Shown piece after piece: positions 26,965 to 57,832 of a DNA stretch of 64,000 nt. This DNA is from Pseudomonas fortuita (lineage in GTDB: Bacteria > Pseudomonadota > Gammaproteobacteria > Pseudomonadales > Pseudomonadaceae): assembly GCF_026898135.2 (NCBI RefSeq), contig NZ_CP114035.2, forward strand, positions 4,443,501 through 4,507,500, given 5' to 3'. The translations under genes and the position numbers were made by a program. Position 1 is the first letter of the stretch. The number at the start of each line of letters is the position of its first letter. The notes under the pieces are model-generated. The model ran no database searches. It was given only the letters and a program-made list of their open reading frames with translations, and had not been told where the DNA came from.

Positions 26965-26974
26965 TTGTACACAG
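26965..26974. promoter_or_regulatory. GclR-type operator upstream of gclR
   Basis: TTGTACACAG, one mismatch from TTGTACACAA, lies 36 bp before the gclR start, suggesting autoregulation. Confidence 0.55.
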
Positions 26975-27063
26975 GCTGAGGCGATTCCGCAGGGGGCGTT
27001 TTACCTATATAGCCGTTGTACGACGCATTGCGCACACAAAACATAAAACATTATTTGCATTCT

Positions 27064-27073
27064 TTGTACACAA
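27064..27073. promoter_or_regulatory. GclR-type operator in the gclR-purine permease gap
   Basis: TTGTACACAA within the longer near-palindrome TTTGTACACAAA. It is placed to act on both divergent genes. Confidence 0.68.
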
Positions 27074-27097
27074 AAGCATAATCCACCGAGCAACTTC

Positions 27098-27113
27098 TTG
27101 ACCCATGAGTCAA
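27098..27113. promoter_or_regulatory. RutR-like operator upstream of the purine permease
   Basis: TTGACCCATGAGTCAA is a nearly perfect palindrome with a CATG centre. It shares TTGACC-N4-AGTCA with the site before xdhA. Confidence 0.65.
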
Positions 27114-27212
27114 CAAAACGGTCAGACGTCTGCCTTCCCTCGCGGAGCCGCCAAGTGCATTGCGCAGGAAACTGGCTCCATAACAACAAGAAAGACTTGA
27201 GGAGTACCTGCT

Positions 27213-28562
27213 GTGGAAAGCCGCAAATCCGAAGCCCCTACGCTGGATCTCGCCCCACCACTCGAAACGAGCTGGCTGGAGCGGATTTTCAAACTCAAGC
27301 AACACGGCAGCACCGTCAAAACCGAAATGATCGCCGGGGTGACCACCTTCATCACCATGGCCTACATCATCTTCGTCAACCCCAACATCATGGCCGACGC
27401 CGGCATCGACCATGGTGCCGCCTTCGTCGCCACCTGCATCGCCGCCGCGCTGGGCTGCCTGCTGATGGGCCTGTACGCCAACTGGCCGGTGGGCCTGGCA
27501 CCGGGCATGGGGCTTAACGCCTTCTTCACCTACACCGTGGTCGGCACCATGGGCTACAACTGGGAAACGGCACTGGGGGCAGTGTTTGTCTCGGGCGTGC
27601 TGTTCATGTTCCTGACCTTGTCGAAAGTGCGCGAATGGTTGCTCAACAGCATCCCGGTCAGCCTGCGCCATGCCATGGGGGCCGGCGTCGGATTGTTTCT
27701 CGGGCTGATCGGCCTGAAGACGGCAGGCATCATCGTCGACAGCCCCGCCACCCTGATCAAGCTGGGCTCGCTGCATGAGCCGGGGCCGCTGCTGGCGGCC
27801 GGGTGCTTTCTGCTGATTGCCATCCTCAGCTACAAGCGGGTATTCGGCGCGATCCTGATCAGCATCATTGGCGTCACCCTGGCAGGCTGGGGCCTGGGCC
27901 TGGTCACGTTTGGCGGGGTGATGTCGATGCCGCCAAGCCTGGCACCGACCTGGATGGCCATGGACGTGGCCGGGGTGTTCAACGTCAGCATGATCAGCGT
28001 GGTGCTGGCGTTTCTGTTCGTGCACATGTTCGACACGGCTGGCACTTTGATGGGGGTGGCGCAACGGGCCAACCTGGTGGCGCCGGACGGGCGTATCGAA
28101 AACCTGTCGAAGGCACTGAAGGCCGATAGTGCTTCGAGTGTGTTCGGGGCCGTGGTCGGCGTGCCGCCGGTCACCAGCTATGTGGAAAGTGCTGCAGGTG
28201 TCGCCGCAGGTGGCCGTACGGGCCTTACGGCAGTGGTGGTCGGCCTGCTGTTCATCGCCGCGATGTTCTTCGCCCCACTGGCCGGGATGATTCCGCCCTA
28301 TGCAACGGCGGGGGCGCTGATCTATGTAGCGATGCTGATGATGGGCAGCATGGCGCACATACACTGGGATGAGGCTACCGACAGCATTCCGGCGATTGTC
28401 ACGGTGATCATGATGCCGCTGACTTTCTCGGTCGCCGACGGCATTGCCCTGGGCTTTATTAGCTACGTGGCGCTGAAGGCGGGTACCGGTAAGTACAAGG
28501 AAATCTCAGCCAGCCTGTGGGTGCTGTGCGCGATCTTTATTGCAAAGTTCGTGTTCCTCTGA
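27213..28562 (+). CDS. NCS2 purine permease of the AzgA type
   Basis: A 449-residue polytopic membrane protein. EMIAGVTTFITMAYIIFVNP (about 34), GLAPGMGLNAFF (about 93) and TSYVESAAGVAAGGRTG (about 310) are typical of AzgA/PbuG adenine, guanine and hypoxanthine permeases. The start is GTG after GAGGAG. Upstream lie one GclR-type and one RutR-type palindrome. Located between guaD and hiuH, it probably supplies purine bases to the catabolic genes around it. The exact base cannot be told from sequence. Confidence 0.9.
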   Translation: MESRKSEAPTLDLAPPLETSWLERIFKLKQHGSTVKTEMIAGVTTFITMAYIIFVNPNIMADAGIDHGAAFVATCIAAALGCLLMGLYANWPVGLAPGMGLNAFFTYTVVGTMGYNWETALGAVFVSGVLFMFLTLSKVREWLLNSIPVSLRHAMGAGVGLFLGLIGLKTAGIIVDSPATLIKLGSLHEPGPLLAAGCFLLIAILSYKRVFGAILISIIGVTLAGWGLGLVTFGGVMSMPPSLAPTWMAMDVAGVFNVSMISVVLAFLFVHMFDTAGTLMGVAQRANLVAPDGRIENLSKALKADSASSVFGAVVGVPPVTSYVESAAGVAAGGRTGLTAVVVGLLFIAAMFFAPLAGMIPPYATAGALIYVAMLMMGSMAHIHWDEATDSIPAIVTVIMMPLTFSVADGIALGFISYVALKAGTGKYKEISASLWVLCAIFIAKFVFL

Positions 28563-28575
28563 GCAGGCGTTCATT

Positions 28576-28606
28576 AAAAAGGGCGTTTCGGCGCCCGTTC
28601 ATTTTT
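28576..28606. terminator. Bidirectional terminator between the purine permease and the RHS gene
   Basis: GGGCG-tttcgg-CGCCC (28581-28596) with five A before it and ATTTTT after it. It works on both strands and ends both convergent genes. The minus-strand form (stem then TTTTT) is the stronger. Confidence 0.8.
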
Positions 28607-29309
28607 ATCTAATCGGTGCGGGTATTTTCGCGAAGATACCGGTTCGAGGAAGTCGAGCCCGTGTCGCTCCTTCCGGAACCTCTTCACGCACCCTGACAAC
28701 GTCAAATGCGGGCTCTCTCACAACCACTACATCAAACACATCCTTTTTATAACCAATGCCGGGAACCAAGCTCATATCGTCGCTTGCAACTACCGCCAAG
28801 ACGATACCGTCGGGGTGGACGTCAGCGTATTTTTGGGCATGATCACGGCTTGGCGCAACATAGAACCCCGGCCCTTGAGCTTGTCTATGAACCTCTGAAT
28901 GCCCTGACGATAGACCTTTGTGCAGCGAGGGCAGCTCTTTGCGACTCGTCCCATGCCACCCCAGTAATTGTGTAAATTTCACCTCGCGGGAAACCGCAGT
29001 CATCGTTTCCACTCGCTTAGGCGTCTGTAGAGCGCTCGCCAGCATTCTCCAAATGCTATGACCGCTTGGGTCCTGGTAATTCACCGGGTCCCCTTGGCAA
29101 TAGGCATAGGCGTTGAAGCCACCTCGATCGAACGGACTCAGATTGTCCGGGCTATTGAACCGCATCAAAGAGGGGTTGAATGCTCGATAACCGTTACCCA
29201 AATGGTAATGTCCGGTGACTGGATCCCGCCGATCACCCTCGAAACCGAGCACACCCTGGCTAGGCAAGTGATAGCCATAAGGCGAATATACATTTTTTGC
29301 GTTCACCAA
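28605..29309 (-). CDS. Orphan RHS-core protein with ADP-ribosyltransferase-like C-terminus
   Basis: A 234-residue protein. Residues 1-90 are the end of an RHS repeat: YSPYGYHLP, GNGYRAFNPSLMRFNSPD, LSPFDRGGFNAYAYCQGDPVNYQDPSG, the conserved junction after which RHS toxins vary. The C-terminal part contains GWHGTSRKELPSLHKGL and QGPGFYVAPSRDHAQKYAD, spaced like the His and Tyr strands of PARP/diphtheria-toxin-type ADP-ribosyltransferases. This is inferred from pattern only. There is no signal peptide and no long RHS shell. TTG at 29309 has GAGGA 6 nt upstream. GTG at 29306 is the alternative. Base composition is visibly lower in GC than the flanking genes, suggesting transfer. No immunity gene was found beside it. 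Confidence 0.75.
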   Translation of the reverse strand: MVNAKNVYSPYGYHLPSQGVLGFEGDRRDPVTGHYHLGNGYRAFNPSLMRFNSPDNLSPFDRGGFNAYAYCQGDPVNYQDPSGHSIWRMLASALQTPKRVETMTAVSREVKFTQLLGWHGTSRKELPSLHKGLSSGHSEVHRQAQGPGFYVAPSRDHAQKYADVHPDGIVLAVVASDDMSLVPGIGYKKDVFDVVVVREPAFDVVRVREEVPEGATRARLPRTGIFAKIPAPIR

Positions 29310-29426
29310 GCGTGGTCCTCAAGTACGAGTTGTGCACTTGATCATTACAGACACCGCCAAATGCGACTACTGACAAAAATGTGAGTCGAAGGGTTGTTTC
29401 ACTTCACTATGTAAATACAGCAGACG

Positions 29427-29456
29427 AAAAAAAGCCCGCCAGTGTGAGAGCGGGCC
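29427..29456 (-). terminator. Intrinsic terminator of hiuH
   Basis: On the minus strand GCCCGC-tctcacactg-GCGGGC is followed by seven T (A-run at 29427-29433). It begins about 33 bp after the hiuH stop. Confidence 0.88.
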
Positions 29457-29488
29457 AAAGGACCTACGAAGATTCTTCTAGCGACCAA

Positions 29489-29842
29489 CTAGCTTCCACG
29501 ATAGGTCGAATAGCTGTACGGCGAGATCAGCAGCGGCACGTGATAGTGCTCCTGCGACTCGTCGATGCCAAAGCGCAGCACAACAACATCCAGAAACGCC
29601 TGGGTCGGCAGTTGCACGCCACGGGCGCGGTAGTAATCACCCGCGCTGAATTGCAACTGATACACCCCGGTGCGGTAGTCGTCACCCTGCAGCAGCGGCG
29701 CGTCGACGCGGCCATCGCTATTGGTCAGGGCGGTGTTCACCAGCTCCAGCTGCTGGCCTTCGACGCGGTACAGCTCGACCTTGATCGAGCTGCCCGGGCA
29801 GCCATGCGCGGCATCCAGTACGTGTGTGGTCAAACGTCCCAT
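29489..29842 (-). CDS. hiuH: 5-hydroxyisourate hydrolase (transthyretin-like)
   Basis: A 117-residue cytoplasmic enzyme that hydrolyses 5-hydroxyisourate, the product of urate oxidation, to OHCU. The N-terminal LTTHVLDAAHGCPGS supplies the catalytic His. The C-terminus ends in the diagnostic YRGS motif (SPYSYSTYRGS). The ORF extends to 29863, but AGAGG fits MGRLTT at 29842. It is divergent from puuE, with GclR-type palindromes near each gene. Confidence 0.96.
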   Translation of the reverse strand: MGRLTTHVLDAAHGCPGSSIKVELYRVEGQQLELVNTALTNSDGRVDAPLLQGDDYRTGVYQLQFSAGDYYRARGVQLPTQAFLDVVVLRFGIDESQEHYHVPLLISPYSYSTYRGS

Positions 29843-29950
29843 TGCGTGTCGCCTCTTGTTCAATCTGTGGGCAAAAAATACTCAGCCATCGCACCAGCAT
29901 AGCGCCTGCGGCAGGCGGGAATGACGCCATTAAGACATTCCATCGCTAAA

Positions 29951-30155: not shown

Positions 30156-30165
30156 TTGTATACAA
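30156..30165. promoter_or_regulatory. GclR-type operator upstream of puuE
   Basis: TTGTATACAA, a perfect palindrome, 76 bp before the puuE start. A likely repressor site for the puuE-uraD-allA operon. Confidence 0.7.
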
Positions 30166-30241: not shown

Positions 30242-31168
30242 GTGAGCGCTGACTACCCTCGCGACCTGATCGGTTACGGCAACAACCCTCCTCACCCGCA
30301 ATGGCCGGGCAACGCTCGCATCGCGCTGTCTTTCGTCCTCAATTACGAGGAAGGTGGCGAACGCAACATCCTGCACGGTGACAAAGAGTCCGAAGCCTTC
30401 CTGTCCGAGATGGTCGCTGCCCAGCCGCTGCAGGGCCAGCGCAACATGAGCATGGAGTCGCTGTACGAATACGGCAGCCGTGCTGGCGTGTGGCGCCTGC
30501 TGAAGCTGTTCAAGGACAGCGGCGTGCCACTGACCGTCTTCGCCGTGGCCATGGCCGCCCAGCGCCACCCCGACGTGATCCGCGCCATGGCCGAAGCCGG
30601 CCACGAGATCTGCAGCCACGGCTACCGCTGGATCGACTACCAGAACATGGACGAGGCCCAGGAGCGCGAGCACATGCTCGAAGCCATCCGCATCCTCACC
30701 GAACTCACCGGCGAGCGCCCGGTAGGCTGGTACACCGGCCGCACCGGCCCGAACACCCGCCGCCTGGTGATGGAAGAAGGTGGTTTCCTGTACGACAGCG
30801 ACACCTACGACGACGACCTGCCCTACTGGGAGCCGAACAACCCCACCGGCAAGCCGCACCTGGTGATCCCCTACACCCTGGACACCAACGACATGCGCTT
30901 CACCCAGGTACAGGGTTTCAACTGCGGCGAGCAGTTCTTCCAGTACCTGAAAGACGCCTTTGATGTGCTGTACGCCGAAGGCGCCGAAGCACCGAAAATG
31001 CTGTCCATCGGCCTGCACTGCCGCCTGGTCGGCCGCCCGGCACGCCTGGCTGCACTCAAGCGCTTCGTCGATTACGCAAAAAGCCATGACCAGGTCTGGT
31101 TCGCCCGTCGCGTGGATATCGCCCGCCACTGGCACGCCACCCACCCGTACAAGAAAGAGAACGCCTGA
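30242..31168 (+). CDS. puuE: Allantoinase PuuE
   Basis: A 308-residue polysaccharide-deacetylase-fold enzyme that opens allantoin to allantoate. This is the cofactor-independent PuuE type, not the metal amidohydrolase AllB. Seen are DLIGYGNNPPHPQWP at the N-terminus, LSFVLNYEEGGERNIL and the NodB-like HEICSHGYRWIDYQ (about 121). It starts with GTG after AGAAGGAAG and is the first gene of puuE-uraD-allA. The stop overlaps the uraD ATG. Confidence 0.95.
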   Translation: MSADYPRDLIGYGNNPPHPQWPGNARIALSFVLNYEEGGERNILHGDKESEAFLSEMVAAQPLQGQRNMSMESLYEYGSRAGVWRLLKLFKDSGVPLTVFAVAMAAQRHPDVIRAMAEAGHEICSHGYRWIDYQNMDEAQEREHMLEAIRILTELTGERPVGWYTGRTGPNTRRLVMEEGGFLYDSDTYDDDLPYWEPNNPTGKPHLVIPYTLDTNDMRFTQVQGFNCGEQFFQYLKDAFDVLYAEGAEAPKMLSIGLHCRLVGRPARLAALKRFVDYAKSHDQVWFARRVDIARHWHATHPYKKENA

Positions 31169-31683
31169 TGACCGCCTTCAACACCCTCAAGCCCTCCGCC
31201 CTGAGCCGTGACGCCTTCGTCGAGGCCTTCGCCGACATCTACGAGCACTCGCCTTGGGTTGCCGAAAAAGCCTACGACCTGGGTCAGCTGAGCGAGCTGG
31301 ACGAGATCGAAGCGCTGCACCAGCGCATGAGCGACATCCTGCTCAGCGCCAACCACGCCGACCAGCTGGCGCTGATCAATGCTCACCCGGACCTGGCCGG
31401 CAAGGCCGCCATCCAGGGCGAGCTGACCGAATCGAGCACTAACGAACAGGCCGGCGCCGGTATCCACCAGTGCACCGCCGAAGAGTTCGCCCGCTTCACC
31501 GAGCTGAACGATGCCTACAAGGCCAAGTTCCAGTTCCCGTTCATCATGGCGGTGAAGGGCAGCAACCGGCACCAGATCCTCGCCGCCTTTGAAAAGCGCA
31601 TTCACAACGATGCCGATGCCGAATTCAAGGAAGCCCTGGCGCAGATCAACCTGATCGCCCTGTTCCGCCTGCTGCAGTTGTAA
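31168..31683 (+). CDS. uraD: OHCU decarboxylase UraD
   Basis: A 171-residue all-helical enzyme that decarboxylates OHCU to (S)-allantoin. The catalytic His lies in INAHPDLAG (about 70-78), followed by the conserved ELTESSTNEQAGAG and the motif KFQFPFIMAVKG (about 125). It overlaps puuE by 1 bp. The product goes directly to PuuE. In P. aeruginosa an allantoicase gene lies between this gene and allA. Here the gap is only 48 bp. Confidence 0.96.
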   Translation: MTAFNTLKPSALSRDAFVEAFADIYEHSPWVAEKAYDLGQLSELDEIEALHQRMSDILLSANHADQLALINAHPDLAGKAAIQGELTESSTNEQAGAGIHQCTAEEFARFTELNDAYKAKFQFPFIMAVKGSNRHQILAAFEKRIHNDADAEFKEALAQINLIALFRLLQL

Positions 31684-31731
31684 ACGGCAGCCGAACCTTT
31701 TCAGTACAACGAATATATAAGAGAGACCCGC

Positions 31732-32235
31732 ATGCGCACCCTGATGATCGAGCCCCTGACCAAAGAAGCCTTCGCCCAGTTCGGAGACGTGATCGAAACC
31801 GACGGCAGCGACCACTTCATGATCAACAACGGCTCGACCATGCGCTTCCACAAGCTCGCCACGGTCGAGACCGCCGAGCCCGAAGACAAGGCGATCATCA
31901 GCATCTTCCGCGCCGACGCGCTGGACATGCCGCTGACCGTGCGCATGCTGGAACGCCATCCGCTGGGCAGCCAGGCTTTCATCCCGCTGCTCGGCAACCC
32001 CTTTCTGATCGTGGTCGCGCCCGTTGGCGATGCACCTGTATCAGGCTTGGTCCGCGCCTTCCGCAGTAATGGCAGGCAGGGCATCAATTACCATCGCGGC
32101 GTTTGGCACCACCCGGTGCTCACGATCGAAAAGCGGGATGATTTCCTGGTGGTTGATCGCAGTGGTTCTGGCAACAACTGCGATGAGCATTACTTCACCG
32201 AGGAACAGATGCTGATCCTCAATCCCCACCAATAA
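31732..32235 (+). CDS. allA: Ureidoglycolate lyase AllA
   Basis: A 167-residue cupin-fold enzyme that splits ureidoglycolate to glyoxylate and urea, the exit point to the gcl genes and the urea transporter. N-terminal MIEPLTKEAFAQFGDVIE and FMINNGSTMRFH are typical, and the motif YHRGVWHHP (about 121) carries active-site His residues. AGAGAG precedes the ATG. Confidence 0.95.
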   Translation: MRTLMIEPLTKEAFAQFGDVIETDGSDHFMINNGSTMRFHKLATVETAEPEDKAIISIFRADALDMPLTVRMLERHPLGSQAFIPLLGNPFLIVVAPVGDAPVSGLVRAFRSNGRQGINYHRGVWHHPVLTIEKRDDFLVVDRSGSGNNCDEHYFTEEQMLILNPHQ

Positions 32236-32278
32236 GAAAAGGTCGATCATCGCAAGGTGATCGGCAGAGGTACATACT

Positions 32279-33607
32279 GTGGAAGCACACCTTCACGAAT
32301 GGCTGAACCTGAGCATTCGCTGGGTTCACATGATCACCGGTGTCGCCTGGATCGGTGCATCGTTCTACTTCGTCTGGCTGGAGAACCACCTGAACCGAAG
32401 CAACCCGCGCGATGGGTTGTCGGGTGATCTCTGGGCGATTCACGGCGGTGGTATCTACCACCTGGAGAAATACAAACTCGCGCCCCCGAAAATGCCCGAG
32501 AACCTGCACTGGTTCAAATGGGAAGCCTACTTTACCTGGATGTCCGGTATCGCCCTGCTGTGCGTGGTGTTCTACTGGAACCCGGCCTTGTACCTGCTGG
32601 CACCTGGCAGCACCCTGAGCGGTGCCGAAGGCGTGGCCATCGGTATCGGCTCGCTGATCGCTGGCTGGTTCATCTACGACTTCCTGTGCGACTCGCCCCT
32701 GGGCAAGAAGCCAGCGCTGCTCGGCGGTGTGCTGTTCGTGCTGATCATCGCCGCCTGCTGGGGCTTCAGCCTGGTGTTCAGCGGCCGTGGTGCATACCTG
32801 CACACCGGCGCGATCATCGGCACCATCATGGTCGGTAACGTGTTCCGCATCATCATGCCGGCCCAGCGCCAGCTGGTGGCGGCGATCGAGAACAACCAGA
32901 CACCCGACCCGGTACTGCCGGCCAAGGGCCTGCTGCGCTCGCGTCACAACAACTACTTCACCCTGCCGGTGCTGTTCATCATGATCAGCAACCATTTCCC
33001 GAGCACCTACGGTAGCCAGTACAACTGGCTGATCCTGGCTGGTATCGCAGTAGCCGCGGTTCTGATCCGCCACTACTTCAACACCCGCCACGACAGCAAC
33101 AAGTACGCCTGGACCCTGCCGGTCGGCGCCCTGGCGATGATCTGCCTGGCCTACGTCACCGGTCCGAAACCGATGGCCGTAAGCCCTGAGCAAGCCGCAG
33201 CGAAAGTCGAGTACCAGCCGCTGCCTGCGACTGCCGTCGGTGGCAAGACCGCTGCCGAGCAGCGCGCCGAAGACGCCGCCAAGGCTGCCGAAGCGCCGGC
33301 TGCACCTGCGCAAGCACCGGCCCAGGCCGCTGCCCAGGCCGGCGGTGGCGACTTCGACAAGATCCACAATGTCATCCAGGAACGCTGCACCGTGTGCCAC
33401 TCGTCCAAGCCGACCAGCCCACTGTTCAGCGCCGCCCCTGCCGGCGTGATGTTCGACACCCCGCAGCAGATCCAGGCCCAGGCCGCGCGCATCCAGGCGC
33501 AAGCGGTCGCCAGCCAGATCATGCCGCTGGGCAACATCACCCAGATGACCACCGAAGAGCGCAAGCTCGTCGGCGACTGGATCGCCAAAGGCGCCCAGGT
33601 CAACTGA
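32279..33607 (+). CDS. puuD: Membrane urate oxidase PuuD with C-terminal cytochrome c domain
   Basis: A 442-residue protein. Residues 1-300 form the membrane domain of the urate_ox_N (DUF989) family, with about eight helices and conserved His residues. An Ala/Pro-rich linker (about 315-350) joins a cytochrome c-type domain with the heme-binding CTVCH at Cys370-Cys373-His374. Family members oxidise urate to 5-hydroxyisourate and pass electrons to the respiratory chain instead of making hydrogen peroxide. It links XdhB to HiuH and is in line with puuE-uraD-allA (43 bp gap). GTG start. Confidence 0.92.
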   Translation: MEAHLHEWLNLSIRWVHMITGVAWIGASFYFVWLENHLNRSNPRDGLSGDLWAIHGGGIYHLEKYKLAPPKMPENLHWFKWEAYFTWMSGIALLCVVFYWNPALYLLAPGSTLSGAEGVAIGIGSLIAGWFIYDFLCDSPLGKKPALLGGVLFVLIIAACWGFSLVFSGRGAYLHTGAIIGTIMVGNVFRIIMPAQRQLVAAIENNQTPDPVLPAKGLLRSRHNNYFTLPVLFIMISNHFPSTYGSQYNWLILAGIAVAAVLIRHYFNTRHDSNKYAWTLPVGALAMICLAYVTGPKPMAVSPEQAAAKVEYQPLPATAVGGKTAAEQRAEDAAKAAEAPAAPAQAPAQAAAQAGGGDFDKIHNVIQERCTVCHSSKPTSPLFSAAPAGVMFDTPQQIQAQAARIQAQAVASQIMPLGNITQMTTEERKLVGDWIAKGAQVN

Positions 33608-41817: not shown

Positions 41818-41899
41818 GGAAAGGTCCTCTTCTTGTTGTGAGAAGCCCTGAGGGCAGTTGAAAACCGATAGGGCAAATAGAACACAACGAAAGGCATTT

Positions 41900-42039: not shown

Positions 42040-42049
42040 TTGTATACAA
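42040..42049. promoter_or_regulatory. GclR-type operator, gcl side
   Basis: TTGTATACAA, a perfect palindrome, 25 bp upstream of the gcl start codon and so probably at or just after the transcription start: a repressor position. Confidence 0.75.
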
Positions 42050-42074: not shown

Positions 42075-43850
42075 ATGAGCAAAATGAGAGCAATCGATGC
42101 AGCCGTTCTGGTCATGCGCCGTGAAGGTGTAGATACCGCGTTCGGCATCCCAGGGGCTGCCATCAACCCGTTGTACTCGGCCCTGAAGAAAGTCGGTGGC
42201 ATCGATCACGTCCTCGCTCGCCACGTCGAAGGTGCCTCGCACATGGCCGAGGGCTACACCCGTGCCAACCCGGGCAACATCGGCGTGTGCATCGGCACTT
42301 CCGGGCCAGCCGGCACCGACATGGTCACCGGCCTGTACAGCGCCTCGGCCGACTCCATCCCGATCCTCTGCATCACCGGCCAGGCCCCGCGTGCACGCCT
42401 GCACAAAGAAGACTTCCAGGCCGTCGACATCACCAGCATCGTCAAGCCGGTGACCAAGTGGGCAACCACCGTTCTGGAGCCAGGCCAGGTGCCTTACGCC
42501 TTCCAGAAGGCCTTCTATGAAATGCGCACCGGCCGCCCAGGCCCGGTACTGATCGACCTGCCGTTCGACGTGCAGATGGCCGAAATCGAATTCGACATCG
42601 ACGCCTACGAGCCGCTGGCCGTCAACAAGCCGTCCGCCACTCGCGTACAGGCTGAAAAAGCCCTGGCCCTGCTCAACGACGCCGAGCGTCCGCTGCTGGT
42701 AGCCGGTGGCGGCATCATCAACGCCGATGCCAGCGACAAGCTGGTCGAGTTCGCCGAACTGACCGGCGTACCGGTAATCCCGACCCTGATGGGCTGGGGC
42801 ACCATCCCGGACGACCACGCACAAATGGTCGGCATGGTCGGGCTGCAAACTTCGCACCGCTACGGCAACGCCACCCTGCTCAAATCCGACCTGGTGTTCG
42901 GTATCGGTAACCGCTGGGCCAACCGCCACACCGGCTCCGTCGATGTCTACACCGAAGGCCGCAAGTTCGTGCACGTCGACATCGAACCGACCCAGATCGG
43001 CCGCGTATTCACCCCGGACCTGGGTATCGTGTCCGACGCCGGCAAGGCCCTGGACGTGTTTCTGGAAGTGGCCCGCGAGTGGAAAGCCGCTGGCAAACTG
43101 AAAGACCGTGCTGCCTGGCTGGAAGACTGCCAGCAGCGCAAAGCCAGCCTGCAACGCAAAACCCACTTCGACAACGTGCCGGTCAAGCCGCAGCGCGTGT
43201 ACGAAGAGATGAACCAGGTATTCGGCAAGGACACCACCTACGTCAGCACCATCGGTCTGTCGCAGATTGCCGGCGCGCAGTTCCTGCACGTTTACAAGCC
43301 ACGCCACTGGATCAACTGCGGCCAGGCCGGCCCGCTGGGCTGGACCATTCCTGCCGCACTGGGTGTAGTGAAAGCAGACCCGAAACGCAAGGTGGTCGCG
43401 CTGTCGGGTGACTACGACTTCCAGTTCATGATCGAAGAACTGGCAGTTGGCGCGCAGTTCAACCTGCCGTACGTCCACGTACTGGTGAACAACGCCTACC
43501 TGGGTCTGATCCGTCAGGCGCAGCGTGGCTTCGACATGGATTACTGTGTACAACTGGCGTTCGAGAACATCAACTCGACCGACGCCGCCACCTACGGTGT
43601 CGACCACGTTGCAGTGGTCGAAGGCCTGGGCTGCAAGGCCATTCGCGTATTCGAGCCGGCTGAGATCGCCCCTGCCCTGCTCAAGGCACAGAAGATGGCC
43701 GAAGAGTTCCGCGTGCCGGTCGTGGTCGAAGTGATCCTCGAGCGCGTGACCAACATTTCCATGGGCACCGAGATCAACGCGGTCAACGAGTTCGAAGACC
43801 TGGCGCTGGTCGGCAACGACGCGCCAACCGCCATCTCGATGCTGGACTGA
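42075..43850 (+). CDS. gcl: Glyoxylate carboligase
   Basis: A 591-residue thiamin diphosphate enzyme that joins two glyoxylate to tartronate semialdehyde and CO2. Val51 (RHVEGA) stands where other ThDP enzymes have a catalytic Glu, the hallmark of Gcl. An FAD-binding middle domain and the ThDP motif [16 protein letters not shown] (about 442) follow. It is the first gene of gcl-hyi-glxR-ttuD-pykF, which also serves ethylene glycol and glycolate use in P. putida. Confidence 0.96.
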
Positions 43851-43859
43851 TCGCCTGAC

Positions 43860-43882
43860 GCCCCCAGGCACGCCCTGGGGGC
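43860..43882 (+). other. Intra-operon hairpin between gcl and hyi
   Basis: GCCCCCAGG-cacgc-CCTGGGGGC, a 9-bp perfect stem in the 54-bp gap. No T-run follows, so it more likely sets the gcl to hyi mRNA ratio or protects a 3' end than ends transcription fully. Confidence 0.6.
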
Positions 43883-43904
43883 CTTCAACGCAAGGAGACA
43901 ACTC

Positions 43905-44729
43905 ATGCCTCGCTTCGCTGCCAACCTGTCCATGCTGTTCACCGAACAGGACTTCCTGGCCCGCTTCAAGGCTGCCGCCGATGCTGGTTTCAGCGGCGTC
44001 GAATACCTGTTCCCGTATGACTTCAGCGCTGCCGACATCAAGCAGCAGCTAGAAGCCAACGGCCTGACCCAGGTGCTGTTCAACCTGCCTGCTGGCGACT
44101 GGGCCAAGGGTGAGCGCGGTATCACCTGCCACCCCGACCGCATCGAAGAGTTCCGTGCCGGTGTCGACAAGGCCATCGAGTACGCCAAGGTGCTGGGCAA
44201 TACCCAGGTCAACGCCCTGGCCGGCATTCGCCCACAAGGCCCGGACTGCGCCACCGTGCGCAAGACCTTCGTGGAGAACCTGCGCTACGCCGCCGACAAG
44301 CTCAAGGCTGCCGGTATTCGTCTGGTCATGGAAATGATCAACACCCGCGACATCCCGGGCTTCTACCTGAACACCACCCAGCAGGCGCTGGAAATCCAGG
44401 CTGAAGTGGGCAGTGACAACCTGTTCCTGCAGTACGACATCTACCACATGCAGATCATGGAAGGTGACCTGGCTCGCACCATGGAAACCAACCTGCAGCT
44501 GATCAACCACATTCAGCTGGCCGACAACCCGGGCCGTCACGAGCCTGGTACTGGCGAAATCAACTACCGCTTCTTGTTCGAGCACCTGGACCGCATTGGC
44601 TACCAGGGCTGGGTGGGCGCGGAGTACAAGCCCAAGACCACCACCGAAGCGGGCCTGGGCTGGCTGAAAACCCATGTGGGAGCGGGCTTGTCCCGCGAAA
44701 GCGCCCGCAAAGACACCTCCATTGCCTGA
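43905..44729 (+). CDS. hyi: Hydroxypyruvate isomerase
   Basis: A 274-residue TIM-barrel enzyme that interconverts hydroxypyruvate and tartronate semialdehyde. Typical motifs are GFSGVEYLFPYDF (about 27), VMEMINTRDIPGFYLN (about 141) and GAEYKPKTTTEAGLGWLK (about 243). The C-terminus is abnormal: after GWLKTH the last 16-17 residues (VGAGLSRESARKDTSIA) are translated from a REP element. Relatives normally end near residue 260. The catalytic part is intact. Confidence 0.94.
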   Translation: MPRFAANLSMLFTEQDFLARFKAAADAGFSGVEYLFPYDFSAADIKQQLEANGLTQVLFNLPAGDWAKGERGITCHPDRIEEFRAGVDKAIEYAKVLGNTQVNALAGIRPQGPDCATVRKTFVENLRYAADKLKAAGIRLVMEMINTRDIPGFYLNTTQQALEIQAEVGSDNLFLQYDIYHMQIMEGDLARTMETNLQLINHIQLADNPGRHEPGTGEINYRFLFEHLDRIGYQGWVGAEYKPKTTTEAGLGWLKTHVGAGLSRESARKDTSIA

Positions 44730-44764
44730 CCGATCACATTCGTGGGGCAAGCCCGCTCCCACAG
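44675..44764. repeat. REP pair straddling the hyi stop codon
   Basis: TGTGGGAGCGGGCTTGTCCCGCGAA lies inside hyi (from 44675), and the inverted partner TTCGTGGGGCAAGCCCGCTCCCACAG lies after the stop (to 44764). Confidence 0.9.
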
Positions 44765-44818
44765 GGTTTTGTGGCAGCCCCGCAGTCAGGTATCAACAAA
44801 TATAAGAGGCACATTATC

Positions 44819-45712
44819 ATGGCTAAAATCGGTTTCATCGGCACCGGCATCATGGGCAAGCCCATGGCCCAAAACCTGCAAAAAGCAGGTCACAGCCTGT
44901 TCGTTTCAACCCACCACGACGCCGCGCCAGCCGACCTGATCGCCGCCGGTGCAGTGGCCCTGGCCAACCCGAAAGAAGTTGCCCAGGAAGCCGAATTCAT
45001 CATCGTCATGGTGCCGGACACCCCGCAAGTGGAAGCCGTACTGTTCGGTGAAAACGGCGTTGCCGAAGGCGTGGGCCCGAACAAGGTCGTGATCGACATG
45101 AGCTCGATCTCGCCTACCGCCACCAAAGCGTTCGCCGAAAAAATCAAGGCAACCGGCGCAGCCTACCTGGACGCCCCGGTGTCCGGTGGTGAAGTCGGCG
45201 CCAAGGCCGCGACCCTGAGCATCATGGTCGGTGGCTGCCCGAAAGCCTTCGAGCGCACCCTGCCGCTGTTCGAAGCCATGGGCAAGAACATCACCCGCGT
45301 GGGTGGTAACGGTGACGGCCAGACCGCCAAGGTTGCCAACCAGATCATCGTTGCCCTGAACATCCAGGCCGTGGCCGAAGCCCTGCTGTTTGCCGCCAAG
45401 AACGGCGCCGACCCGGCCAAGGTGCGTGAAGCACTGATGGGCGGCTTTGCTTCGTCGAAAATCCTCGAAGTGCACGCAGAGCGCATGATCAAAGGCACCT
45501 TCGACCCAGGCTTCCGCATCAACCTGCACCAGAAAGACCTGAACCTTGCCCTGCAAGGCGCCAAGGAACTGGGCATCAACCTGCCCAACACCTCCAATGC
45601 CCAGCAAGTGTTCAACACCTGCCAGGCCCTGGGTGGCGGTAACTGGGACCACTCGGCGCTGATCAAAGGCCTGGAGCACATGGCCAACTTCTCGATCCGC
45701 GGCGACAAGTAA
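44819..45712 (+). CDS. glxR: Tartronate semialdehyde reductase
   Basis: A 297-residue beta-hydroxyacid dehydrogenase that reduces tartronate semialdehyde to D-glycerate with NAD(P)H. A Rossmann motif GFIGTGIMGKPMA is at the N-terminus. The substrate motif DAPVSGGEVGA is at about 118 and the catalytic Lys is in GGNGDGQTAKVANQ (about 171). AAGAGG precedes the ATG at 44819. An in-frame start at 44771 lacks support. Confidence 0.95.
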   Translation: MAKIGFIGTGIMGKPMAQNLQKAGHSLFVSTHHDAAPADLIAAGAVALANPKEVAQEAEFIIVMVPDTPQVEAVLFGENGVAEGVGPNKVVIDMSSISPTATKAFAEKIKATGAAYLDAPVSGGEVGAKAATLSIMVGGCPKAFERTLPLFEAMGKNITRVGGNGDGQTAKVANQIIVALNIQAVAEALLFAAKNGADPAKVREALMGGFASSKILEVHAERMIKGTFDPGFRINLHQKDLNLALQGAKELGINLPNTSNAQQVFNTCQALGGGNWDHSALIKGLEHMANFSIRGDK

Positions 45713-45811
45713 GTTGTAGACCGTACCGGCCTCTTCGCGGCGGTTCGGCGCGAAAAAGCCAACACCGCTGAACCTGCGACCACAGGTTCAGCGGGAGCAC
45801 CGAGCAACACC

Positions 45812-45856
45812 CGCCCCTGGTTCGGCCTGCACGGAGGCAGTTCCAGGGGCGTTTTT
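45812..45856 (+). terminator. Terminator-like hairpin between glxR and ttuD
   Basis: CGCCCCTGG (45812-45820) pairs with CCAGGGGCG (45843-45851) and is followed by TTTTT. It has the form of an intrinsic terminator inside the operon, before ttuD. Confidence 0.75.
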
Positions 45857-45890
45857 GGTTTTGCAGAACAACAATAACTGGGAGCCTGCC

Positions 45891-47165
45891 ATGTCGGTCG
45901 ATCCGCAAAAAATTCTCCGCGAGCTGTTCGACACAGCCATCGCTGCCGCCCACCCCCGCCAAGTCCTCGAACCCTACCTGCCCGCCGACCGTAGCGGCCG
46001 GGTCATCGTCATCGGCGCCGGCAAGGCCGCAGCCGCCATGGCCGAAGTGGTCGAGAAAAGCTGGCAGGGCGAAGTTTCCGGCCTGGTCGTGACCCGTTAC
46101 GGCCACGGTGCCAACTGCCAGAAGATCGAGGTGGTCGAAGCCGCCCACCCGGTCCCCGACGCCGCCGGCCTGGCGGTAGCCAAGCGCGTGCTGGAGCTGG
46201 TCAGCAACCTCAATGAAGACGACCGCGTCATCTTCCTGCTGTCTGGCGGTGGTTCCGCCCTGCTGGCACTGCCGGCCGAGGGCCTTACCCTGGCCGACAA
46301 GCAACAGATCAACAAGGCACTGCTCAAATCCGGCGCCACCATCGGCGAGATGAACTGCGTGCGCAAGCACCTCTCGGCGATCAAGGGCGGCCGCCTGGCC
46401 AAGGCCTGCTGGCCGGCCACGGTCTACACCTATGCCATTTCCGATGTACCGGGCGACCTTGCCACCGTGATCGCCTCTGGCCCCACCGTGGCCGACCCGA
46501 GCACGTCGGCTGACGCCCTGGCTATTTTGAAACGCTACAACATCGAAGCGCCCAAAGCAGTCATCGACTGGCTGAACAACCCGGCTTCGGAAACCGTCAA
46601 GTCCGATGACCCGGCCCTGGCTCGCAGCCACTTCCAGCTGATTGCCAAACCCCAGCAATCGCTCGAAGCCGCTGCGGTAAAAGCCCGACAGGCAGGTTTC
46701 AGCCCGCTGATCCTCGGCGACCTGGAAGGCGAATCACGCGAGGTGGCCAAGGTGCACGCCGGTATCGCCCGGCAGATCGTCCAGCATGGCCAGCCACTGA
46801 AGGCACCCTGCGTGATCCTGTCAGGCGGCGAAACCACTGTGACCGTACGCGGCAATGGCCGTGGCGGGCGCAACGCCGAGTTCCTGCTCAGCCTCACTGA
46901 AAGCCTGAAAGGCCTCGCGGGCGTATACGCCTTGGCCGGCGACACCGACGGCATCGATGGCTCGGAAGAAAACGCCGGTGCCTTCATGACCCCAGGCAGC
47001 TACGCCCGCGCCGAGGCCCTGGGCCTGTCGGCCAGCGACGAGCTGGACAACAACAACGGCTATGGCTATTTCGCCGCGCTGGATGCGCTGATCGTCACCG
47101 AACCGACCCGCACCAACGTCAACGACTTCCGCGCCATCCTGATCCTCGAGACTGCCCAATCATGA
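45891..47165 (+). CDS. ttuD: Glycerate 2-kinase, MOFRL/DUF4147 family (usually annotated hydroxypyruvate reductase TtuD)
   Basis: A 424-residue protein with the DUF4147 plus C-terminal MOFRL domains: VIVIGAGKAAAAMAEVVE (about 36), FLLSGGGSALLALP (about 117), then ILSGGETTVTVRGNGRGGRNAEFLL (about 307) and DGIDGSEENAGAF. The historical name TtuD (hydroxypyruvate reductase) is attached to this family, but its better characterised activity is ATP-dependent phosphorylation of glycerate to 2-phosphoglycerate. That activity is the step needed between GlxR and PykF here. Its stop overlaps the pykF start (ATGA). Confidence 0.9.
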   Translation: MSVDPQKILRELFDTAIAAAHPRQVLEPYLPADRSGRVIVIGAGKAAAAMAEVVEKSWQGEVSGLVVTRYGHGANCQKIEVVEAAHPVPDAAGLAVAKRVLELVSNLNEDDRVIFLLSGGGSALLALPAEGLTLADKQQINKALLKSGATIGEMNCVRKHLSAIKGGRLAKACWPATVYTYAISDVPGDLATVIASGPTVADPSTSADALAILKRYNIEAPKAVIDWLNNPASETVKSDDPALARSHFQLIAKPQQSLEAAAVKARQAGFSPLILGDLEGESREVAKVHAGIARQIVQHGQPLKAPCVILSGGETTVTVRGNGRGGRNAEFLLSLTESLKGLAGVYALAGDTDGIDGSEENAGAFMTPGSYARAEALGLSASDELDNNNGYGYFAALDALIVTEPTRTNVNDFRAILILETAQS

Positions 47166-48577
47166 CGCCTGATAAAAAAGTAAAGATCCTCGCCACCCTC
47201 GGCCCTGCGATCAACGGCATCGACGACATCCGCCAACTGGTCGAAGCCGGGGTGAACATCTTCCGCCTCAACTTCAGCCACGGCGAACACGCTGACCACG
47301 CCCTGCGTTACCAGTGGATCCGCGAAGTGGAGCAGCAACTGAACTACCCGCTGGGTATCCTCATGGACCTGCAGGGGCCTAAGCTGCGCGTGGGCCGCTT
47401 CGCTGAAGGCAAGGTGCAGCTGCAACGCGGCCAGGCCCTGCGCCTGGACCTGGACAAGACCCCGGGCGACAGCCGTCGGGTCAACCTGCCACACCCTGAA
47501 ATCATCGCAGCCCTTGAGCCCGGCATGGACCTTTTGCTGGACGACGGCAAGCTGCGCCTGCGCGTCACCGCCAAGCACAACGACGCCATCGACACTGAAG
47601 TGCTGAACGGTGGCGAGTTGTCCGACCGCAAGGGCGTCAACGTACCGCAAGCAGTACTCGACCTGTCCCCGCTCACCGAAAAGGACCGCCGCGACCTGGC
47701 CTTTGGCCTGGAACTGGGCGTGGACTGGGTGGCCCTGTCGTTTGTACAGCGCCCTGAGGACATCGTTGAAGCCCGCCAGCTGATTGGCGACCGTGCCTAC
47801 CTGATGGCCAAGATCGAGAAGCCGTCGGCAGTCGAACAACTGCAAGCCATCGCCGAACTGGCAGACGCAATCATGGTGGCCCGCGGTGACCTTGGCGTGG
47901 AAGTGCCGGCCGAAAGCGTGCCGCAAATCCAGAAGCGCATCATCAGCACCTGCCGCCAGCTGGGCAAACCGGTGGTGGTGGCCACGCAGATGCTCGAGTC
48001 CATGCGTTTCTCCCCAGCGCCGACCCGGGCCGAAGTCACCGACGTGGCCAACGCCGTGGCCGAAGGTGCCGATGCGGTCATGTTGTCGGCTGAGACTGCC
48101 TCGGGTGACTACCCGTTGGAAGCCGTGCAGATGATGAGCAAGATCATACGCCAGGTGGAAAACGGCCCGGACTACCAGGCCCAGCTCGACGTTGGCCGGC
48201 CAAAAGCCGAGGCCACCGTGTCGGACGCCATCAGCTGCGCCATCCGCCGCATCAGCGGCATCCTGCCGGTGGCGGTGCTGGTCAACTACAGCGAGTCGGG
48301 CGCCTCGACCCTGCGCGCTGCACGCGAGCGGCCACGGGCACCGATCCTCAACCTGACACCGAACCTGAACACCGCGCGCCGCCTCAGCGTGGCCTGGGGC
48401 GTGCATTCGGTGGTCAACGACCGCCTGCGTCAGGTGGACGAGGTGGTTTCCACCGCCCTGGAGATTGCCCAGGCGCAAGGCATGGCCAGCCGTGGCGACA
48501 CGCTGCTGATCACTGCCGGTGTGCCTTTCGGCAAGCCAGGCTCGACTAACACGCTGCGGATCGAGACTTTGATCTGA
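47162..48577 (+). CDS. pykF: Pyruvate kinase
   Basis: A 471-residue enzyme that converts phosphoenolpyruvate and ADP to pyruvate and ATP. Motifs are KILATLGPAING and RLNFSHG at the N-terminus, MDLQGPKLRVG (about 67), the catalytic Lys segment LMAKIEKPSAVEQL (about 217) and MVARGDLGVEVP (about 238). It is coupled to ttuD by a 4-bp overlap and ends the route glyoxylate to pyruvate. Pseudomonads carry another pyruvate kinase elsewhere, so this copy is probably dedicated to the glyoxylate operon. Confidence 0.95.
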   Translation: MTPDKKVKILATLGPAINGIDDIRQLVEAGVNIFRLNFSHGEHADHALRYQWIREVEQQLNYPLGILMDLQGPKLRVGRFAEGKVQLQRGQALRLDLDKTPGDSRRVNLPHPEIIAALEPGMDLLLDDGKLRLRVTAKHNDAIDTEVLNGGELSDRKGVNVPQAVLDLSPLTEKDRRDLAFGLELGVDWVALSFVQRPEDIVEARQLIGDRAYLMAKIEKPSAVEQLQAIAELADAIMVARGDLGVEVPAESVPQIQKRIISTCRQLGKPVVVATQMLESMRFSPAPTRAEVTDVANAVAEGADAVMLSAETASGDYPLEAVQMMSKIIRQVENGPDYQAQLDVGRPKAEATVSDAISCAIRRISGILPVAVLVNYSESGASTLRAARERPRAPILNLTPNLNTARRLSVAWGVHSVVNDRLRQVDEVVSTALEIAQAQGMASRGDTLLITAGVPFGKPGSTNTLRIETLI

Positions 48578-54772: not shown

Positions 54773-54784
54773 TGCTGCCAGCAC

Positions 54785-54880: not shown

Positions 54881-54891
54881 TACTGGCAACT

Positions 54892-55818: not shown

Positions 55819-55857
55819 GGTGGGTCGCAGGCTGGCAAAAGCGGCATTCTACCTTGA

Positions 55858-55953
55858 GGGCCTCTTCACGGGTAAACCCGCTCCCACAGGGACCCCACAG
55901 TATTCAGAGCTACGGTGATCCTGTGGTAGCGGGTTTACCCGCGAAGAGGCCGG
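55858..55953. repeat. REP pair
   Basis: GGGCCTCTTCACGGGTAAACCCGCTCCCACAGG with inverted copy ending GGGTTTACCCGCGAAGAGGCCGG. Confidence 0.92.
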
Positions 55954-55963
55954 CAAGGTCACT

Positions 55964-56860: not shown

Positions 56861-56993
56861 CTCACACCTCCCGTTGTTGATGGCAACAGTATGCAAAGGT
56901 TACAGCTCAGCCTTCCAGCGGATAACCAAGGCAGATTTGCAGCCTTGCCTTTACTATCAAGGCAAATTACGCGAATTACCTGACGAGGTGACC

Positions 56994-57431
56994 ATGACCG
57001 ATGCCATCGACCAACTGTTGATCAATGCACTGATGGAAGACTCGCGCCGCTCGCTCAAAGCCCTGGCGCAAGTCAGCGGGCTGTCCGCGCCCAGCGTCAG
57101 CGAGCGCCTGCGCCGCCTGGAAGAGCGCGGTGTGCTGCGCGGTTACACCGTGGAGGTCGATCCGCGCGCCTTTGGTTACCAGTTACAGGCCATCGTGCGC
57201 ATCCGCCCACTGCCGGGCCAGCTGCAGGAGGTAGAACGGCAAATCATCGCCATCCCCGAGTTCACCGAGTGCGACAAGGTCACCGGGGAGGACTGTTTCA
57301 TTGCCCGGTTGCATGTGCGCTCGATGGAGCAACTGGACACCCTGCTCGACCGCATCAATGTGCTGGCCGAGACCAACACCGCCATCATCAAGAAAAGCCC
57401 GGTGAAGCGGCGATTGCCGCCAATGGAATGA
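56994..57431 (+). CDS. Lrp/AsnC-family transcription regulator
   Basis: A 145-residue regulator: an N-terminal HTH (DQLLINALMEDSRRSLKALA, then VSGLSAPSVSERLRRLEERG) and a C-terminal RAM ligand domain. GAGG 6 nt before the ATG at 56994 fixes the start. The 133-bp gap to the EamA gene is short and divergent, suggesting it controls that exporter in response to a small molecule such as an amino acid. Confidence 0.93.
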   Translation: MTDAIDQLLINALMEDSRRSLKALAQVSGLSAPSVSERLRRLEERGVLRGYTVEVDPRAFGYQLQAIVRIRPLPGQLQEVERQIIAIPEFTECDKVTGEDCFIARLHVRSMEQLDTLLDRINVLAETNTAIIKKSPVKRRLPPME

Positions 57432-57444
57432 ATTCGCCTGTCCC

Positions 57445-57537
57445 GGCCTCTTCGCGGGTAAACCCGCTCCCACAAGTACTGCACCAGATTTGGGCTTGTG
57501 ATGAACCCTGTGGGAACGGGTTTACCCGCGAAGAGGC
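57445..57537. repeat. REP pair
   Basis: GGCCTCTTCGCGGGTAAACCCGCTCCCACAAG and inverted copy. It occupies the start of the 555-bp gap before the NCS1 permease. Confidence 0.92.
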
Positions 57538-57562
57538 TAGCGCAGAAAAACCTGACGATTTT

Positions 57563-57572
57563 TTGTACACAT
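57563..57572. promoter_or_regulatory. Weak GclR-type operator, distal to the NCS1 permease
   Basis: TTGTACACAT, one mismatch from the palindrome, within TTTTTTGTACACATAAA. Confidence 0.45.
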
Positions 57573-57652
57573 AAATGTCACCATAAGTGCCATTTTTGTG
57601 TGCACTTTCTTCAGAAACGCCCCATTGCGTTACACACTACCCGCAACTAATT

Positions 57653-57668
57653 TTGACCATTCGATCAA
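57653..57668. promoter_or_regulatory. RutR-like operator upstream of the NCS1 permease
   Basis: TTGACCATTCGATCAA matches TTGACCA-NN-TGGTCAA at 12 of 14 defined positions. A second, weaker GGTCAA half-site follows at about 57705. Confidence 0.6.
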
Positions 57669-57732
57669 CTAAATAGTCGACAGAAAATTTAAACCTGTTC
57701 ATTCGGTCAATTTATACCTCACTTATTTCATT

Positions 57733-57757
57733 AACTTATCTTTCAAAAAGATAAGTT
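57733..57757. repeat. Perfect inverted repeat in the permease leader region
   Basis: AACTTATCTTT-caa-AAAGATAAGTT: an 11-bp perfect stem, AT-rich, about 230 bp before the NCS1 permease. It resembles a regulator site or RNA hairpin. No T-run follows. Confidence 0.75.
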
Positions 57758-57822
57758 CGAAATGTCCATCTGTTACAACTTCCTTTCCCCTGGCATGGAA
57801 CTCGCTTTTGTGTGTTCGTGTT

Positions 57823-57832
57823 TTGTATACAA
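57823..57832. promoter_or_regulatory. GclR-type operator upstream of the NCS1 permease
   Basis: TTGTATACAA, a perfect palindrome, about 155 bp before the start codon. Confidence 0.68.

What the first reader, a model, noticed from the sequence alone, without database searches (positions are those of the whole stretch)
26965..57832. A repeated palindrome TTGTAYACAA marks a purine-allantoin-glyoxylate regulon spread over 31 kb
Eight copies were found, all in gene-start regions of the catabolic block: 26965 (one mismatch) and 27064 between gclR and the purine permease, 29951 before hiuH, 30156 before puuE, 41900 and 42040 between the GlcG-like gene and gcl, and 57563 (one mismatch) and 57823 before the NCS1 permease. 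Four of them are perfect TTGTATACAA. The GntR-type GclR-like gene lies within the set and has its own site. GclR control of gcl in P. putida is established. Extension to hiuH, puuE, the purine permease and the NCS1 permease is inference from the sites.
Basis: partly seen in the sequence, partly recalled or inferred. Interest (0 to 1): 0.72.

Follow-up and report, generated by a model that had tools for sequence, protein, structure and literature searches.

The report
Purine-to-glyoxylate regulon with paired operators
A short DNA palindrome marks the switches that one repressor probably uses to control purine breakdown, uptake and purine-sensing genes in soil pseudomonads, and at one promoter its two copies keep a spacing that suggests the repressor bends the DNA into a loop.

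Summary
Observation confirmed: six perfect TTGTAYACAA places and two near-copies as stated; two further one-mismatch copies lie inside genes. The host genome has 11 TTGTATACAA, about 1 expected. Among 119 congeners, nine without a close GclR have 0-1; 101 with GclR, puuE and gcl average 7.9. The puuE site is perfect in 20 of 20 relatives read. Of 90 gcl starts read, 81 have an operator pair; the nine without all lie beside a LysR gene. The regulon reaches outside the window: two more nucleobase permeases, the purine chemoreceptor gene mcpH, perhaps azurin.

New here: operator spacing at gcl runs from 106 to 160 bp in steps of about one helical turn. Two operators kept on one face of the helix suggest a repression loop, as proposed for the related repressor Atu1419.

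Not shown: binding by GclR, its inducer, its oligomeric state. Three genomes without a close GclR keep a puuE site, which counts against strict dependence; the hiuH-puuE pair is not phased.

The parts
26174..26929 (-). gclR, FCD-type GntR repressor gene (taken as the ortholog of P. putida PP_4283 from gene order and family)
   Evidence: Pfam FCD and GntR domains; start at 26929 from the alignment of 16 orthologs, where M1 is invariant
26965..26974 (.). gclR-proximal operator, TTGTACACAG, about 35 bp upstream of the gclR start
   Evidence: same 10-mer in 5 of 5 putida-group relatives read, 97-99 bp from the next site
27064..27073 (.). operator TTGTACACAA between gclR and the permease gene
   Evidence: a site at this place in the same five relatives
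27213..28562 (+). permease gene of the xanthine/uracil family
   Evidence: PF00860, 165 bits, no NCBIfam hit; orthologs in G017, G083 and G106 carry a perfect site upstream, also G023
29489..29863 (-). hiuH, hydroxyisourate hydrolase
   Evidence: TIGR02962, PF00576
29951..29960 (.). hiuH-proximal operator TTGTACACAA
   Evidence: a site within one mismatch of TTGTATACAA in 15 of 20 relatives read
30156..30165 (.). puuE operator TTGTATACAA
   Evidence: perfect in 20 of 20 relatives read
30242..33607 (+). puuE-uraD-allA-puuD: allantoinase, OHCU decarboxylase, ureidoglycolate lyase, urate oxidase
   Evidence: TIGR03212, TIGR03164, NF002949; PF06181
41900..41909 (.). gcl distal operator O2, TTGTATACAA
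41995..42024 (+). predicted sigma-70 promoter of gcl, TTGACC-18-TACACT
   Evidence: sequence; conserved letters in this stretch in 81 aligned promoters and ten shown in full; not mapped by experiment
42040..42049 (.). gcl proximal operator O1, TTGTATACAA, just past the predicted start of transcription
   Evidence: -35 to -37 from ATG in 81 of 81 promoters with a pair
42075..48577 (+). gcl-hyi-glxR-ttuD-pyk: glyoxylate to pyruvate
   Evidence: TIGR01504, TIGR03234, TIGR01505, glycerate 2-kinase and pyruvate kinase models
57563..57572 (.). weak site TTGTACACAT upstream of the NCS1 permease
   Evidence: conservation not tested
57791..57805 (+). sigma-54-like element TGGCATGGAACTCGC, two mismatches
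   Evidence: CbrB ChIP target PP4309 is annotated as an NCS1 transporter
57823..57832 (.). NCS1 permease operator TTGTATACAA
   Evidence: NCS1 relatives in G017, G102 and G083 (78-82% identical) carry it
57903..60264 (+). NCS1 nucleobase/allantoin-type permease and Asp/Glu/hydantoin racemase genes

Best explanation
The palindrome is the operator of GclR, an FCD-type GntR repressor. GclR controls uptake of nucleobases and ureides (four permease genes, two of them in the window), degradation of urate through allantoin to glyoxylate (hiuH, puuE operon), use of that glyoxylate (gcl operon), its own gene and, outside the window, the purine chemoreceptor gene mcpH. At gcl it sits on two operators, one just past the predicted transcription start and one about 13 turns upstream, on the same face of the helix, and probably holds the promoter in a closed loop. 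A purine-degradation intermediate, rather than glyoxylate itself, probably releases it. Shown here: sites, conservation, co-distribution, phased spacing. Shown in the literature: gclR loss switches the gcl pathway on. Inferred: binding, looping, inducer.
For: TTGTATACAA 11 versus about 1 expected in the genome. Counts in 119 congeners: 0-1 in nine without a close GclR, mean 7.9 (range 2-13) in 101 with GclR, puuE and gcl, reversed control mean 0.41. puuE site in 20 of 20, hiuH site in 15 of 20 relatives read. Operator pair in 81 of 90 gcl starts read; none within 300 bp in the other nine, all LysR-linked. Pair spacing in one-turn steps. mcpH: 8-mer core 35-67 bp before ATG in 9 of 10 orthologs and at -46 in the host. 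Second NCS1 and an NCS2 permease outside the window. Literature: gclR loss or deletion enables growth on ethylene glycol (passages); deleting the GntR gene in GO16, where the glycol-linked gcl lies beside a LysR gene, has no effect on glycol growth (section read). Residues matching the listed DNA contacts of Atu1419 are invariant in the 16 GclR aligned.
Against: G026, G043 and G050 have puuE and no close GclR, yet keep TTGTATACAA, TTGTATACAT and TTGTATACAA upstream of puuE. They carry only weaker GclR homologs (best E 2e-42, 1e-57, 2e-40), so another protein may read the site or GclR was lost recently. TTGTACACAA is not enriched genome-wide, nor is the 8-mer core. The hiuH-puuE pair is not phased (R 0.42, p 0.07), so looping is argued for gcl only. 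One spacing difference between close promoters, 147 against 160, is not a whole turn. No oligomeric state, no footprint, no expression data seen for the other genes. Several host sites have no evident link to purines (hemE, lpd, VOC gene, an unnamed gene at 4517159).
Confidence: 0.75

Rival explanations
1. Same regulon, but no loop: GclR dimers bind O1 and O2 separately; O2 is kept in phase for another reason, such as contact with an activator or with RNA polymerase bound at the promoter.
For: The Atu1419 paper says that all GntR regulators studied before it were dimeric (passage). Several regulon promoters show one operator only within two mismatches. A conserved AT-rich stretch lies just upstream of O2, which could be an activator site.
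Against: The spacing changes by about whole turns in separate lineages while both operators stay. The related Atu1419 is a tetramer for which looping is proposed and which was examined on two-site DNA by electron microscopy (passages).
Confidence: 0.22
2. Another protein, for example an FCD paralog about 50% identical to GclR, is the main reader of the palindrome.
For: Sites at puuE persist in three genomes without a close GclR; the host has such a paralog at 2087080-2087712.
Against: No site within one mismatch in the 8 kb around that paralog. Palindrome number follows GclR. gclR mutants derepress the gcl pathway (passages).
Confidence: 0.08
3. The palindromes are chance matches in AT-rich spacers.
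For: TTGTACACAA alone and the 8-mer TGTATACA are not enriched in the genome.
Against: Shuffles, reversed control, conservation at orthologous promoters.
Confidence: 0.01

Closest known systems
GclR (PP_4283) of Pseudomonas putida KT2440
   Same: Same gene order (12 kb from the gcl cluster, near xanthine genes) and same gcl operon; loss of gclR switches on the gcl pathway.
   Different: In the passages read and listings seen here, no operator sequence, no wider target list, no looping is given.
Atu1419 of Agrobacterium fabrum (tetrameric FCD/VanR GntR repressor)
   Same: FCD GntR repressor; 10-bp palindrome ATGTATACAT with the same TGTATACA core; two palindromes per promoter region; DNA looping proposed (passages).
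   Different: Weak sequence similarity to GclR (6z74, E 8e-6 with a profile; that 6z74 is Atu1419 is recalled). Separations there 190 and 109 bp; controls hydroxycinnamate degradation genes, effector methylenetetrahydrofolate.
AraR of Bacillus subtilis
   Same: GntR-type DNA-binding domain and DNA looping, known to me from a reference title seen and from recall.
   Different: Different effector domain and operator (recalled).
Lac repressor-type loops
   Same: One operator at the start of transcription, one about 100 bp away, spacing in whole turns (recalled).
   Different: Unrelated protein family (recalled).
E. coli AllR-controlled allantoin/glyoxylate genes
   Same: One regulator over allantoin and glyoxylate (gcl) genes (recalled, not opened).
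   Different: IclR-family regulator, other operator (recalled).
CbrAB carbon-limitation system of P. putida
   Same: The 61 selected CbrB ChIP targets include PP4283, PP4309 (NCS1) and PP4643 (xanthine/uracil permease), which seem to be three of the palindrome promoters here (table read).
   Different: Gene correspondence is inferred from annotation and gene order, not from sequence.

Membership tests
FCD-type GntR regulators | N-terminal GntR winged helix and C-terminal FCD domain | tested here: met
   PF00392 62.4 bits (cut-off 27), PF07729 84.3 bits (cut-off 24.3)
FCD-type GntR regulators | DNA-contact residues Glu, Arg, Thr, Arg of the recognition region, as listed for Atu1419 | tested here: met
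   E48, R59, T60, R63 invariant in 16 of 16 GclR; register from the alignment with FadR 1hw1 and the same residue spacing as the contacts listed; GclR was not aligned with Atu1419 residue by residue
FCD-type GntR regulators | binds a short palindrome with TGT...ACA half-sites | not testable with these tools
   sites found, binding not tested
Looping tetrameric repressors (Atu1419 type) | tetramer in solution | not testable with these tools
   structure prediction never started; it would not show the oligomer anyway
Looping tetrameric repressors (Atu1419 type) | two operators at one promoter with preserved helical phase (phase is my own criterion; I saw no such test in the Atu1419 passages) | tested here: met
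   gcl: R 0.80 at 10.5 bp for 13 lineage values picked by me from the tree; a fraction 0.0002 of 5000 jittered sets as high
Looping tetrameric repressors (Atu1419 type) | same phase rule at other target promoters | tested here: not met
   hiuH-puuE pair 178-206 bp, R 0.42, p 0.07; these sites may serve two divergent promoters
GclR regulon | target promoters lose the palindrome where GclR is missing | tested here: inconclusive
   counts are 0-1 in 9 of 9 genomes, but 3 of 3 that keep puuE keep a puuE site

The most novel reading that the evidence does not exclude
GclR is a looping repressor that listens to a purine-degradation intermediate and not to glyoxylate, and it couples chemotaxis toward purines (mcpH), nucleobase uptake, urate degradation and glyoxylate use in one switch. 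This would explain why P. putida KT2440 does not grow on ethylene glycol although it has the enzymes: its glyoxylate genes answer to a purine signal.
Probability: 0.4. Interest if true: 0.68.

Novelty: new member of a known kind. Interest (0 to 1): 0.55.

Why it matters
gclR has been deleted or lost in several P. putida strains built or evolved to use ethylene glycol from plastic. If GclR also governs purine uptake, urate degradation and purine chemotaxis, those strains carry wider changes than assumed. The phased operator pair gives a direct, cheap test for looping by an FCD GntR repressor; the Atu1419 paper calls its protein the first tetrameric GntR regulator. The regulon also narrows the search for the inducer to purine-pathway compounds.

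Tried and rejected
Host sites outside the window near hemE, lpd, an unnamed gene at 4517159 (flagellar-type by eye only; no NCBIfam hit), a small ORF at 307847 and ccoN (COX1 family): not counted as regulon. In the 51 loci held from seven distant genomes (most of their 57 TTGTATACAA places), hemE, lpd, the 4517159 gene and the 307847 ORF have no match, ccoN has one (G113), the VOC gene one (G027). Azurin site (host 5681201): azurin stands 87-100 bp from a perfect palindrome in 4 of 7 (G017, G102, G083, G023), the LOG-family gene on the other side in only 2 of these 4; so azurin is the likelier target, but no purine link is known to me and it is left as a candidate. An earlier listing had been cut to five hits per locus and had hidden azurin in G083. 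8-oxoguanine deaminase (site ATGTATACAA on its strand, 88 bp upstream): a like site (CTGTATACAA) in G057 only, none within two mismatches in G009, G015, G027; 14 of 18 genomes searched have no ortholog at the threshold: inconclusive. gdhA site: not followed. A sigma-54 element next to the NCS2 permease site seen by eye has the wrong spacing and is not claimed. Helical phase at hiuH-puuE: tested, not found. The 8-mer TGTATACA as a genome-wide marker: rejected, 21 found against about 20-21 expected; reversed control 7. Structure prediction of GclR: queue full at each of eight attempts.

Ascertainment. Of the 81 gcl promoters measured, 70 had been picked by a pattern that requires a perfect pair with a gap of 112-142 bp, and 11 came from 19 further genomes that had gcl but did not match it; so 'pair' is partly a selection, while the spread of spacings outside that range comes from the 11. 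The 12 other genomes that match were not fetched (G011, G023, G035, G036, G038, G048, G062, G074, G075, G085, G094, G096). G060 has gcl cut by a contig end, and the second gcl of G024 was not read. mcpH was noticed because four genomes (G102, G023, G027, G106) had perfect sites there; of the six other orthologs, found by protein search, two have the perfect 10-mer, three the 8-mer core, one TTGTATCCAA. The draw of 14 distinct spacings treats neighbouring values as independent; the lineage-wise test is the one to use, and its 13 values were picked by me from a rough tree. Literature listings were cut: 20 of 29 papers shown, 10 of 25.
Full report
The sites. Six are perfect TTGTAYACAA; two have one mismatch. 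Two more one-mismatch copies, at 43544 and 58158, lie inside the gcl and NCS1 genes and were not listed. The genes beside the sites are as named: GntR/FCD regulator, a permease of the xanthine/uracil family, hiuH (minus strand), puuE operon with uraD, allA and urate oxidase puuD, gcl-hyi-glxR-ttuD-pyk, NCS1 permease with a racemase.

More than chance. The host genome (6.31 Mb) has 11 TTGTATACAA and 4 TTGTACACAA places. The first form is expected about once, the second about four times over both orientations (models trained on fetched host stretches only). So the perfect palindrome is strongly enriched; the other form is not, and its two copies in the window rest on where they are and on conservation.

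Spread over the genus. In 119 genomes of the genus, the number of TTGTATACAA was compared with the presence of GclR, gcl and puuE. Six genomes lacking all three have 0-1 copies (mean 0.33); three with puuE but no close GclR have 0-1; nine with GclR and puuE but no gcl at E<=1e-250 have 1-9 (mean 2.6); 101 with all three have 2-13 (mean 7.9). The reversed pattern averages 0.41. The genomes are related, so the rank test is not a clean probability.

Against a strict reading: the three genomes with puuE but no close GclR (G026, G043, G050) still have a site upstream of puuE (TTGTATACAA, TTGTATACAT, TTGTATACAA). They have weaker GclR homologs. Either a paralog reads the site or GclR was lost recently.

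Conservation by promoter. In 20 relatives whose gclR-puuE region was read, the puuE site is perfect in 20, and a hiuH-proximal site is present in 15; it is missing in G066, G056, G091, G110 and G112. A site between gclR and the permease, or upstream of gclR, is present in 15 of 20; the five without it are G066, G018, G056, G091 and G112, where no permease was found beside gclR. The weak site at 26965 is identical in 5 of 5 putida-group relatives, 97-99 bp from its partner. With the gclR start placed at 26929, it sits about as far from its start codon as O1 does from that of gcl.

The gcl pair. Of 90 gcl starts read, 81 have a palindrome at -35 to -37 from ATG and a second one upstream; nine have none within 300 bp. 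Seventy of the 81 had been picked by a pair pattern, 11 came from 19 genomes that did not match it. The nine, including the host's second gcl at 3612784, each lie beside a divergent LysR-family gene. This fits a 2026 paper on P. umsongensis GO16 (PMC13357446, section 15 read): its glycol-linked gcl lies by the LysR gene ttdR, and deleting the GntR gene there had no effect on growth with ethylene glycol.

Spacing. The distance from O2 to O1 is 106 (1 genome), 116 (1), 126 (1), 127 (1), 128 (9), 130 (1), 137 (1), 138 (25), 139 (12), 140 (22), 147 (2), 149 (1), 150 (3) and 160 (1) bp. A rough tree from flanking sequence puts one-turn differences in separate branches: G088 at 130 among relatives at 140; G006 and G070 at 127-128 beside G077 and G044 at 138; a clade at 126-128 beside one at 139; G083 and G051 at 116 and 106; G027 at 139 beside three at 150. 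One difference does not fit (G041 at 147 beside G042 at 160). With 13 lineage values, the resultant at 10.5 bp is 0.80 and at best 0.83 at 10.8 bp; of 5000 sets jittered by up to 8 bp, a fraction 0.0002 and 0.0000 did as well. A predicted sigma-70 promoter, TTGACC-18-TACACT, lies between the operators with O1 just past the expected start. Two operators that may drift apart by whole turns, but seldom by half turns, are what a repression loop predicts. The hiuH-puuE pair shows no such phase (R 0.42, p 0.07); there, each site may serve its own promoter.

Outside the window. In the host, perfect sites also stand upstream of a second NCS1 permease (1953867) and an NCS2 xanthine-type permease (5314490). 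In seven distant genomes (57 TTGTATACAA places, most of them read), gcl and puuE have one in 7 of 7 (two of the puuE cases by coordinates only), the NCS2 permease in 4, NCS1 in 3, mcpH in 4, azurin in 4. Azurin was not expected; in the host and these four it lies 87-114 bp from the site. Why a copper protein should belong here I cannot say.

The purine chemoreceptor. The mcpH gene of the host matches the ligand domain of P. putida McpH (PDB 8bmv, E 1e-160) and has the five residues of the published purine motif (motif seen in passages of PMC11245519). At -46 it has GTGTATACAC. Of 18 genomes searched, 10 have an ortholog at E<=1e-150; 9 of the 10 have the 8-mer TGTATACA at -35 to -67, six of them the perfect 10-mer; the tenth has TTGTATCCAA. 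In four of the ten (G061, G027, G106, G063), motif residue D169 is N; the published D169N mutant bound adenine 80 times more weakly, so purine sensing may be weaker there.

What is known. Passages read: gclR deletion or loss-of-function mutations switch on the gcl pathway and allow growth on ethylene glycol (PMC11166783, PMC9206389; also PMC6978631). CbrB ChIP-seq (PMC6296734, section 5 part 1 read) lists PP4283, PP4309 and PP4643 among 61 targets: a GntR regulator, an NCS1 transporter and a xanthine/uracil permease, most likely three of the promoters here, though I matched them by annotation and order only. Atu1419 (PMC7797058, passages) is a tetrameric FCD GntR repressor with the palindrome ATGTATACAT, for which looping is proposed. 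A comparative study of GntR motifs (PMC4494728, passages) holds neither TTGTATACAA nor allantoin in its main text. Searches for the operator, for TGTATACA with GntR, and for these locus tags listed no paper that describes GclR operators, regulon or loop (13 and 81 cut short); the library lacks most subscription papers, and I did not see the original GclR paper (Li et al. 2019).

Mechanism. GclR bound to O1 and O2 would hold the gcl promoter shut; at other promoters it would act from operators near the start. A small molecule bound to the FCD domain would release it. Since wild-type KT2440 oxidises ethylene glycol yet keeps gcl off unless gclR is lost, glyoxylate is probably not an effective inducer; a urate or ureide intermediate fits the gene set better. 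This last step is inference.

Noticed in passing
28605-29309 and 49633-50391: Two orphan Rhs-core genes sit on the minus strand inside the catabolic block, one between the permease and hiuH; both match the RHS repeat-associated core model and no Pfam family at E 0.001.
   Followed up: partly
41875-41887: A stretch AAATAGAACACAA just upstream of O2 is conserved across the 81 gcl promoters; possible site of another regulator.
   Followed up: no
L022 2888-3235 (host 5681201): A perfect palindrome upstream of azurin is kept in four of seven distant genomes; the LOG-family gene on its other side is kept in only two of the four.
   Followed up: partly
host genome 3612784-3614556: A second gcl (87% identical) with a divergent LysR gene and no GclR palindrome.
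   Followed up: yes
L240, L241, L243, L244, L245 upstream of mcpH: By eye, sigma-54-like elements (GG-N10-GC) directly follow the palindrome in five mcpH orthologs.
   Followed up: no
window 26174-26929, residues 222-240 of GclR: A tail beyond the FCD match (KLNLD...SDDLHAVFSHL) is almost invariant in 16 orthologs; could be an oligomerisation element.
   Followed up: no
57440-57540: Inverted GCGGGTAAACCCGC-type repeats (REP-like, recalled) upstream of the NCS1 promoter (sequence).
   Followed up: no
host 2360338 and 767599: One-mismatch palindromes stand upstream of an 8-oxoguanine deaminase gene and of an NADP-glutamate dehydrogenase gene; the first is not conserved beyond G057.
   Followed up: partly
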